Assembly: GCA_021324255.1 (NCBI GenBank)
Contig: JAJPJL010000051.1
Location: forward strand, 1 to 60,613
Direction: 5' to 3'
DNA: 60,613 bases
DNA from: Bacillota bacterium
GTDB taxonomy: Bacteria > Sysuimicrobiota > Sysuimicrobiia > Sysuimicrobiales > Segetimicrobiaceae
Made by a program: the position numbers and the translations under genes. Positions 56,785 through 58,159 of the stretch are shown piece by piece. Numbering within the stretch: position 1 is the stretch's first letter; every line of letters begins with the position of its first letter. The notes under the pieces are model-generated. The model saw only the letters and a program-made list of their open reading frames with translations. It did not search any database and was not told the origin of the DNA.

Positions 56785-56828
56785 GTTGACAATCAGTTGA
56801 CTCATGGTTATCATCAGGTTATGAACGT
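56785..56828 (+). promoter_or_regulatory. Leaderless sigma-70-type promoter with four phased 11-bp repeats
   Basis: TTGACA (56786-56791), 17-bp spacer, TATCAT (56809-56814, one mismatch). The expected +1 falls on the ATG at 56821. The same bases fall into four consecutive 11-mers starting with GTT: GTTGACAATCA, GTTGACTCATG, GTTATCATCAG, GTTATGAACGT. They lie on one face of the helix, a likely operator for the antitoxin encoded downstream. Confidence 0.75.
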
Positions 56829-57621
56829 TGTCCTAGAAGGCGACCCCGACGCGTTGCGGGCGTGGGGTAGGGCGCAGGCCCCCGGCGCGGTATCCTGCCA
56901 CGAGGTTCTCGCCGCCGGGAGCCCCGCGAAAGCCCGGGCGTTCGCAGAGGCGGCGCTTGCGGTCGTCCACCGCGCCCTGATGCTTGTGGCGACCCCCGCG
57001 GCCGTGAACCCGTTGGAGTCGGCGTACCTCACCAAGCATCTCCACGACGCTGTGCCGGCCACCATCGTGTCACCGTGGACGGAGCTCGACGACGACTGCC
57101 GCGGCGCAGTGGCCCTTGAAGTCGCGCAGCGATGCCGGACGGTCACATTCTTTCGCGACGTCGCGCGCCCGATGGCGGCGCCGCCCCGAACGACCGTGAC
57201 CTCCGCTGACGCGCTCCGGCGATACTACCACCTCGTCGCATTTCTCGAGGGCATCGTGCTCGAAGATCTCGCGAACGAACCGCTTCAGGACGAATACCTC
57301 AACAAGGTGAGGCGCCTGCGGAGCGGTCTTGGGCTCACGACGGAAGACCTCGCCAAATTGCTGCGCATCACCAGGGCGGCGATCCACAAATGGACGCAGG
57401 GGAAGGGGGTATCCCTCGAGCTTCGCGCCCGCATCGACGAGTGGCTGGCCGTCCTCACGCGCCTCGAGAGTTACTGGCGCCCCGGCCTGCTGCCGTCCAT
57501 CCTGCGTCGGCATGGGCGCGGGCTCGGCGGCAAGAGACCCCTCGACGTGATGTTGCACGGCGGGGTCGACCGAGTCCTCGAATACTTTGACGCGTTGACG
57601 GACTACGGTGCCACCGCGTAG
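56821..57621 (+). CDS. Xre/MbcA/ParS-type antitoxin, module 1
   Basis: A 266-residue antitoxin. The N-terminal 150 residues are unusual (Ala-rich, unrelated to the known small antitoxins). A helix-turn-helix follows at about 165-190 (GLTTEDLAKLLRITRAAIHK). The C-terminal toxin-binding domain reads LTRLESYWRPGLLPSILRRH and GGKRPLDVMLHGGVDRVLEY, the MbcA/ParS/Xre signature. It neutralises the RES toxin encoded next and represses the promoter. Translation probably starts without a leader at ATG 56821; an upstream in-frame TTG (56797) lies before the predicted transcription start. Confidence 0.85.
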   Translation: MNVVLEGDPDALRAWGRAQAPGAVSCHEVLAAGSPAKARAFAEAALAVVHRALMLVATPAAVNPLESAYLTKHLHDAVPATIVSPWTELDDDCRGAVALEVAQRCRTVTFFRDVARPMAAPPRTTVTSADALRRYYHLVAFLEGIVLEDLANEPLQDEYLNKVRRLRSGLGLTTEDLAKLLRITRAAIHKWTQGKGVSLELRARIDEWLAVLTRLESYWRPGLLPSILRRHGRGLGGKRPLDVMLHGGVDRVLEYFDALTDYGATA

Positions 57622-58159
57622 GTGGTCGCCCCGCACGCGCGGGCCGTTCATCGCCACGGTGTACCGTTATATCCCGCACGCCGGCTCGGATCCGATGGAC
57701 GGCCGGCATTCGATGACGCGCGGCGGCCGATGGAACGCGCCGGGCAGTTTCCCCGTCGTCTACACCAACTGCTCCATAGACGTCGCGATCGTCAATCTGT
57801 GGCGACAATTTCGAAGCGAAGTCGGACAACCATGGGAGGTTGCCGAAGAGAAGCAGGCCGACCTCTACGAGATCGACCTCGACCAGCCCGGCCTGATAGA
57901 CGTCGTGTCGCCCGGCGGGATCGCCGGTATCGGGCTGCCGGCCGCGTACCCGGACGCGGCCCCGCGTTCGCTCACACAACGCATAGGCCGTCGCCTGCAC
58001 CAGGAGCGCCGGCCGGGCGTCTGGTGCATCTCGGCCGCACTTCGTTCCGGTCGGGAGATCGCGCTCTTCACGGATTATTGTGCGCCCGGTACGGTGCGCC
58101 GCCCGCCGAAACGCCTGCGCGAATGGTTTCCCGTACCCGACGAGTGGAAGACCCCATGA
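57608..58159 (+). CDS. RES-domain toxin, module 1
   Basis: A 183-residue RES-domain protein, overlapping the antitoxin by 14 bases. It carries YRYIPHAG (Arg-Tyr pair), GGRWNAPG and VVYTNCSIDVAIVN. RES toxins are ADP-ribosyltransferase-fold enzymes; MbcT degrades NAD and ParT modifies Prs. Here the residue 11 positions after the conserved Tyr, normally Glu, is Asn, so catalysis is in doubt. The GTG start has no ribosome-binding site of its own and relies on coupling. It is tail to tail with a second RES gene, overlapping it by 85 bases. Confidence 0.82.
   Translation: MPPRRWSPRTRGPFIATVYRYIPHAGSDPMDGRHSMTRGGRWNAPGSFPVVYTNCSIDVAIVNLWRQFRSEVGQPWEVAEEKQADLYEIDLDQPGLIDVVSPGGIAGIGLPAAYPDAAPRSLTQRIGRRLHQERRPGVWCISAALRSGREIALFTDYCAPGTVRRPPKRLREWFPVPDEWKTP

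What the first reader, a model, noticed from the sequence alone, without database searches (positions are those of the whole stretch)
56785..56828. Leaderless antitoxin promoter overlaid by four 11-bp phased repeats
TTGACA-N17-TATCAT places +1 on the antitoxin ATG, so the mRNA would have no leader. The same DNA falls into four consecutive 11-mers that each begin GTTG or GTTA, close to the helical repeat of 10.5 bp. A repressor could stack on one DNA face and cover -35, spacer, -10 and start codon together. This would couple repression and translation start unusually tightly.
Basis: partly seen in the sequence, partly recalled or inferred. Interest (0 to 1): 0.7.

Follow-up and report, generated by a model that had tools for sequence, protein, structure and literature searches.

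The report
Four-repeat operator on leaderless antitoxin promoter
The on-switch of a bacterial toxin-antitoxin gene pair appears to begin transcription exactly at the antitoxin's start codon and carries four evenly spaced copies of a short DNA word, kept in two distant relatives, that probably let the antitoxin sit on its own promoter and shut it off; each ingredient is known elsewhere, but this layout seems to be a new variant.

Summary
TTGACA (56786-56791), a 17-bp spacer and TATCAT (56809-56814) place +1 on the ATG at 56821. The same 44 bp (56785-56828) split into four 11-mers starting GTTG/GTTG/GTTA/GTTA. The gene is a diverged Xre (DUF2384-type) antitoxin, followed by a RES-domain toxin overlapping it by 14 nt. 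Among letters not fixed by promoter or start codon, 9 of 10 'GTTR' columns are invariant versus 1 of 14 others (P = 7e-5). The three-unit pattern, searched in 43 genomes of the order, hits almost only these three promoters. About 14 other RES modules in the order have leaders and mostly palindromic operators. Best reading: a head-to-tail operator for autorepression by the antitoxin or its toxin complex, laid over a leaderless sigma70-type promoter. Binding and transcription start are inferred, not shown. Leaderless self-repressed regulators, leaderless TA transcripts and a direct-repeat operator in this family (MbcA) are known: new variant of a known kind. 'Unusually tight coupling' of repression and translation is not supported.

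The parts
56785..56795 (+). 11-bp unit 1, GTTGACAATCA (contains the -35)
   Evidence: orthologues GTTGACATTAG and ATTGACAGCTA
56796..56806 (+). 11-bp unit 2, GTTGACTCATG (lies wholly in the promoter spacer; no promoter constraint on its GTTG)
   Evidence: orthologues GTTGTAATCTG and GTTGTTATGTA
56807..56817 (+). 11-bp unit 3, GTTATCATCAG (contains the -10)
   Evidence: orthologues GTTATCATTGA and GTTAAGCTCGA
56818..56828 (+). 11-bp unit 4, GTTATGAACGT (contains the start codon)
   Evidence: orthologues GTTGTGAGCGT and GTTGTGAACGT
56786..56791 (+). -35 hexamer TTGACA
   Evidence: TTGACA in both orthologues
56809..56814 (+). -10 hexamer TATCAT, 17-bp spacer
   Evidence: TATCAT and TAAGCT at the same place in the orthologues
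56821..56821 (+). predicted +1, on the A of the antitoxin ATG (inferred from promoter spacing)
   Evidence: same 6-nt gap from -10 to start codon in both orthologues
56821..57621 (+). Xre-type antitoxin, 266 aa: helical N-terminal domain (about 1-113), HTH (163-206), Xre/MbcA/ParS-type toxin-binding C-terminus
   Evidence: C-terminal half aligns with NatR Z 12.0, VPA0769 Z 10.3, MbcA Z 10.2
57608..58159 (+). RES-domain toxin, GTG start overlapping the antitoxin stop by 14 nt (same arrangement with ATG in both orthologues)
   Evidence: (PF08808, 2e-13)

Best explanation
The 44 bp is an autorepression operator made of four head-to-tail recognition words (consensus RGTTR, one per DNA turn) superimposed on a strong sigma70-type promoter whose transcript starts at the antitoxin start codon. 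Shown: the sequence, its conservation, its near-uniqueness to this module and the downstream Xre-RES operon. Inferred: the antitoxin, probably as a complex with the RES toxin, places one HTH in each successive major groove of the array and so covers -35, spacer, -10, +1 and start codon, excluding RNA polymerase. A complex with four HTHs (the 4:2 Xre-RES form known from relatives, whose two dimers are modelled about 20 bp apart) would fit four units at 11 bp and a 22-bp dimer-dimer step. When antitoxin falls the array is freed, and a leaderless mRNA is made that needs no Shine-Dalgarno site; the toxin is translated from an overlapping start and so probably depends on antitoxin translation.
For: Exact sequence and promoter. 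Conservation of the four units, -35, -10, spacing and start codon in both orthologues. In the orthologues an in-frame stop ends 3 or 9 nt upstream of the GTG, and protein conservation begins there, so the start codon is right. Free GTTR columns 9/10 invariant, other free columns 1/14. Pattern search in 43 genomes: the four-unit form hits this promoter, the G006 orthologue and one coding repeat; the three-unit form hits only the three promoters plus one other site. The downstream gene has an HTH and a fold like MbcA/NatR. The related subtype B modules also have lag 11 as best self-match, with TGTGGC words between -35 and -10. Literature: P. putida Xre-RES 4:2 complex represses its promoter, its dimer contacts two adjacent major grooves, and the second dimer is modelled about 20 bp away (PMC12204516); M. 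tuberculosis MbcA represses through what appears to be a direct repeat (PMC7291234).
Against: No binding, footprint or transcript data. HTH dimers have a two-fold axis and usually read inverted repeats; no dyad better than shuffles was found in the array, so head-to-tail reading needs an asymmetric assembly or flexible HTHs. Only three orthologues exist in the data. The recognition helix differs among the three (TRAAIHKW, SRTSVQKW, TPEATRKW) while the word is constant. In the G017 orthologue there is a second possible promoter upstream (TTGACA-N18-TACTCT), so a leadered transcript is possible there.
Confidence: 0.62

Rival explanations
1. The array is bound by a trans-acting OmpR/PhoB-type response regulator, which reads 11-bp direct repeats head to tail; the module would then answer to phosphate or another signal.
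For: 11-bp direct repeats are the classic layout for that family (own knowledge). The genome's pstS upstream region has pho-box-like repeats TTAACcgtctgCTAACA.
Against: The conserved core is RGTTR; the 'AC' of a pho box is kept only in unit 1, where the -35 demands it. The pattern is essentially confined to the three Xre-RES promoters, whereas a global regulator would have many sites. The two other GTTNAC pairs in the genome lie inside a coding sequence and upstream of an unrelated gene.
Confidence: 0.08
2. Promoter plus coincidence: the 11-bp phasing is a by-product of fixed promoter spacing and of the conserved first codons, with no separate operator here.
For: -35 to -10 (23 bp) and -10 to ATG (12 bp) put TTG, TA and RTG in near 11-bp register; MNV/MSV coding constrains the end of unit 4.
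Against: With those letters fixed, the remaining GTTR letters are still 10/10, 10/10 and 9/10 in the three sequences, shuffle P 8e-5 and 6e-4 for the orthologues; unit 2 has no promoter role and keeps GTTG in all three.
Confidence: 0.1
3. The repeats are read by the antitoxin, but the real transcript starts upstream and has a leader; leaderless expression is only apparent.
For: The genome as a whole shows only a small excess of leaderless-type promoters (5 TAnnnT at -12 for 959 candidate starts, about 2 at other positions) and a clear Shine-Dalgarno signal. The G017 orthologue has an alternative upstream promoter.
Against: No Shine-Dalgarno sequence in front of the start codon in any of the three orthologues; no other promoter-like site on either strand of the 300 bp scanned in the window; the -10-to-start distance is exactly 6 nt in all three.
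Confidence: 0.14
4. The phased GTT steps act through DNA shape (bending or flexibility of the promoter) rather than as protein recognition words.
For: Phased TT steps near the helical repeat can curve DNA (own knowledge); spacing is 11 bp.
Against: The conserved letters are a specific word with G and purine at fixed places, not interchangeable A/T runs; no A-tracts are present.
Confidence: 0.06

Closest known systems
P. putida Xre-RES (PMC12204516)
   Same: Xre antitoxin followed by RES toxin; autorepression through repeats in the promoter; two HTH dimers per complex, modelled about 20 bp apart on DNA.
   Different: Its main operator is an imperfect inverted repeat; no four-unit direct array over the start codon is described.
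M. tuberculosis MbcA-MbcT (PMC7291234)
   Same: Antitoxin with the same C-terminal fold; operator seems to be a direct repeat (two GACAAA, 12 bp apart); RES toxin detectably related to ours.
   Different: Two units with 18-bp period against four with 11-bp period; +1 lies 34 nt upstream of the start codon; no N-terminal extra domain.
AcuR of Rhodobacter sphaeroides, lambda cI, Tn1721 tetR (PMC3017554 and references in it)
   Same: Self-repressing regulator encoded in a leaderless transcript; transcription begins at the ATG.
   Different: Other DNA-binding families or only distantly related HTHs, not TA modules; no 11-bp direct-repeat array described there.
Leaderless toxin-antitoxin transcripts of M. 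tuberculosis (PMC8485053)
   Same: TA genes predominantly expressed as leaderless mRNA.
   Different: Different phylum and a genome where leaderless transcripts are about 25%; no shared operator.
Subtype B Xre-RES module in the same window (59774 to 58402, minus strand) and relatives
   Same: Operator words between -35 and -10 with 11-bp spacing (TGTGGCnCATT TGTGGCACACT).
   Different: Two units, each nearly palindromic; leader with Shine-Dalgarno site; start codon not covered.

Membership tests
Xre-RES type II toxin-antitoxin module | RES-domain protein as second gene | tested here: met
   PF08808 E 2e-13, above cut-off; phmmer hit to MbcT 6fkg_A, 8e-6
Xre-RES type II toxin-antitoxin module | Antitoxin with Xre-type HTH and Xre/MbcA/ParS toxin-binding C-terminus | tested here: met
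   Pfam hits lie below curated cut-offs (HTH_31 24.6 of 27 bits, PF09722 20.7 of 24.5), but the predicted fold of residues 152-263 matches NatR (Z 12.0, 110 aligned, rmsd 3.7) and MbcA (Z 10.2, 109 aligned, rmsd 3.8), well above unrelated rows
Xre-RES type II toxin-antitoxin module | Bicistronic, antitoxin first, tightly linked | tested here: met
   14-nt overlap in the window and same arrangement in both orthologues
Canonical NAD-consuming RES toxin | Conserved R-E-S catalytic residues of the toxin | tested here: not met
   Arg (GGRWN) and Tyr present, but Asn stands at the Glu position (MbcT E69) in all three orthologues; other subtypes in the order keep Glu or Asp. Ser not examined in detail
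Canonical NAD-consuming RES toxin | NAD-consuming toxicity neutralised by the antitoxin | not testable with these tools
   needs expression
Xre-RES autoregulation | Operator in the promoter bound by the antitoxin or complex | tested here: inconclusive
   conserved, module-specific repeats found; binding not testable
Leaderless mRNA | Transcript 5' end at the start codon | not testable with these tools
   predicted from promoter spacing; spacing conserved in three orthologues
Leaderless mRNA | No Shine-Dalgarno sequence before the start codon | tested here: met
   CAGGTTATG, TGAGTTGTG, CGAGTTGTG
OmpR/PhoB-type direct-repeat box | 11-bp direct repeats with the regulator's core word, present at several target genes | tested here: not met
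   spacing fits, but the pattern is confined to this module and its orthologues apart from isolated hits

The most novel reading that the evidence does not exclude
A small clade of Xre antitoxins with an added N-terminal domain reads a four-site, head-to-tail, one-per-turn direct-repeat operator, the last unit of which is built into its own start codon and first codons, so that promoter, operator, leaderless translation start and protein N-terminus share the same 44 bp. This would be a second mode of DNA reading in a family known mainly for palindromes.
Probability: 0.45. Interest if true: 0.6.

Novelty: new variant of a known kind. Interest (0 to 1): 0.45.

Why it matters
How Xre-RES complexes with four HTH domains use more than one DNA site is an open question (PMC12204516). 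A compact, conserved four-unit array matched to four HTHs would make it directly testable by footprinting and spacing mutants. It also suggests that a leaderless start codon can be part of an operator, which limits how promoter, operator and N-terminus can evolve.

Tried and rejected
Searches for more orthologues: relatives (193 genomes), order and class (43 each, the same genomes), genome contigs twice, viral contigs and plasmids; only G006 and G017 found (the genome-contig hit L014 is the G017 record). Profile search of PDB sequences with the antitoxin: no hit. Dyad search in the array: none better than shuffles. A look-alike promoter at G000:C57:43708 (TTGACAATAAGAAGTCTCCATGGTATCGTCTGGTTGTG) precedes no Xre-like gene and lacks unit 2. 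Pho-box hypothesis tested and disfavoured. Sigma region 2 resemblance of the N-terminal domain: best Z 6.6, below the level for helical bundles; not claimed. Literature searches for an 11-bp direct-repeat antitoxin operator and for a leaderless operator overlapping a start codon returned no paper, which says little given the library's limits.

Full report
WHAT IS THERE. The window lies on contig C48 of a 3.7-Mb genome, about 69% G+C in the 355 kb sampled. The G017 orthologue is a groundwater MAG labelled Armatimonadetes, of the same order. The promoter is exactly as described: TTGACA 56786, 17-bp spacer, TATCAT 56809, six bases, ATG 56821; it is the only promoter-like site in 300 bp on either strand. 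The 44 bp fall into GTTGACAATCA GTTGACTCATG GTTATCATCAG GTTATGAACGT. The gene is a 266-aa antitoxin with an Xre HTH and a toxin-binding C-terminus, whose predicted fold matches NatR, VPA0769 and MbcA. A RES toxin follows, overlapping by 14 nt.

CONSERVATION. Only two orthologues were found. G006 (another genus of the family, 55% identity) reads GTTGACATTAG GTTGTAATCTG GTTATCATTGA GTTGTGAGCGT; G017 (another family of the order, 46%) reads ATTGACAGCTA GTTGTTATGTA GTTAAGCTCGA GTTGTGAACGT. All three have TTGACA-N17-TAnnnT-N6-[A/G]TG. In the orthologues an in-frame stop lies just upstream of the GTG, and protein conservation begins at codons 2-3, so the start codon is secure. The toxin start overlaps the antitoxin stop in the same way in each.

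IS IT MORE THAN PROMOTER GEOMETRY? Promoter spacing itself puts TTG, TA and RTG near an 11-bp register, so I fixed the hexamers and everything from the start codon on, and tested only the other 24 columns. Lag-11 self-match is 0.55 against 0.30; P is 0.0025, 0.0008 and 0.0013 for the three promoters one by one, and 8e-5 for the two orthologues together allowing any lag from 6 to 16. Of ten free columns belonging to GTTR, nine are invariant; of fourteen other free columns, one is (Fisher P = 7e-5), with pairwise identity 29%, about random. So the word is held while its surroundings are saturated, which argues against recent transfer. Searching 43 genomes of the order, the four-unit pattern gives three places, two of them these promoters (0.03 expected); RGTTR x3 gives six places, five of them in these three promoters (0.5 expected).

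COMPARISON WITH OTHER RES MODULES. A RES search in the order gave 20 loci. I sorted those with a recognisable antitoxin into groups A (this one), B, C, D and E by antitoxin and promoter. B, which includes a second module in this window, has TGTGGC words at 11-bp spacing between -35 and -10, plus a leader; C has CTTGA...TCAAG dyads; D mixed dyads; E a long-span inverted repeat of TTGAC 44-47 bp apart. Lag 11 is the best self-match in all A and B promoters and in none of C, D, E. A alone has the start codon at +1 and a direct array without a dyad.

IS LEADERLESS EXPRESSION ODD HERE? In 187 selected genes the Shine-Dalgarno signal is clear, and TAnnnT at -12 shows only a slight excess (5 against about 2). 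Genome-wide, five sites fit the strict TTGAC-leaderless pattern, among them one before a HigB-like toxin gene and one before a winged-helix regulator-like gene (names given by eye). So leaderless genes are a minority here, and the layout is not unique to this gene. Elsewhere TA transcripts of M. tuberculosis are predominantly leaderless (PMC8485053), and self-repressing leaderless regulators include lambda cI, Tn1721 tetR and acuR (PMC3017554).

MECHANISM. Shown: sequence, conservation, near-uniqueness, operon. Inferred: autorepression by promoter occlusion. The P. putida complex has four Xre and two RES; a dimer contacts two adjacent major grooves, and the second dimer is modelled about 20 bp away (PMC12204516). 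Four HTHs at one per turn would fill 44 bp. That the words are direct rather than inverted is the unsolved part; the P. putida structure is itself asymmetric, and MbcA seems to use a direct repeat (PMC7291234). The leaderless mRNA probably serves to make antitoxin without a Shine-Dalgarno site. In acuR such a first gene is translated less than the genes after it (PMC3017554), so the overlapping toxin start may matter for balance. Placing the operator over the start codon does not by itself regulate translation.

VERDICT. New variant of a known kind.

Noticed in passing
window 57608-58159 (+); L063, L062: RES toxins of this subtype have Asn where MbcT has its conserved Glu69 and where other RES subtypes in the order have Glu or Asp; Arg and Tyr are kept. 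Activity may differ from canonical NAD-consuming RES toxins.
   Followed up: partly
window 59819-58402 (-): A second, distantly related Xre-RES module with palindromic TGTGCCACATTTGTGGCA operator between -35 and -10 and a Shine-Dalgarno leader; next to it an AbrB-like/PIN-domain-like pair by eye (60607 to 59887, minus strand), so the window end looks like a TA cluster.
   Followed up: partly
L068, L075, L077, L076: A further group of Xre-RES promoters has a long-span inverted repeat, CTTGACG/GGTTGAC at the -35 and its complement 44-47 bp downstream.
   Followed up: no
L012 around 1432-1480 (G017): Upstream of the array three GATTGAC words at 16-bp spacing, including the perfect dyad GATTGACAGTCAATC, with a possible second promoter.
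   Followed up: no
L052 around 1140-1290: Upstream of pstS, TTAAC/TTTAA repeats resembling a pho box (TTAACcgtctgCTAACA).
   Followed up: partly
window 56821-57160 (antitoxin residues 1-113): Extra helical N-terminal domain, apparently also in subtype B; weak structural resemblance to sigma factor region 2 (best Z 6.6; the top ten rows are sigma factors), below the level that can be trusted.
   Followed up: partly
L023: A HigB-like toxin gene with the same strict leaderless promoter geometry (TTGACG-N17-TAGAAT-N6-GTG).
   Followed up: no
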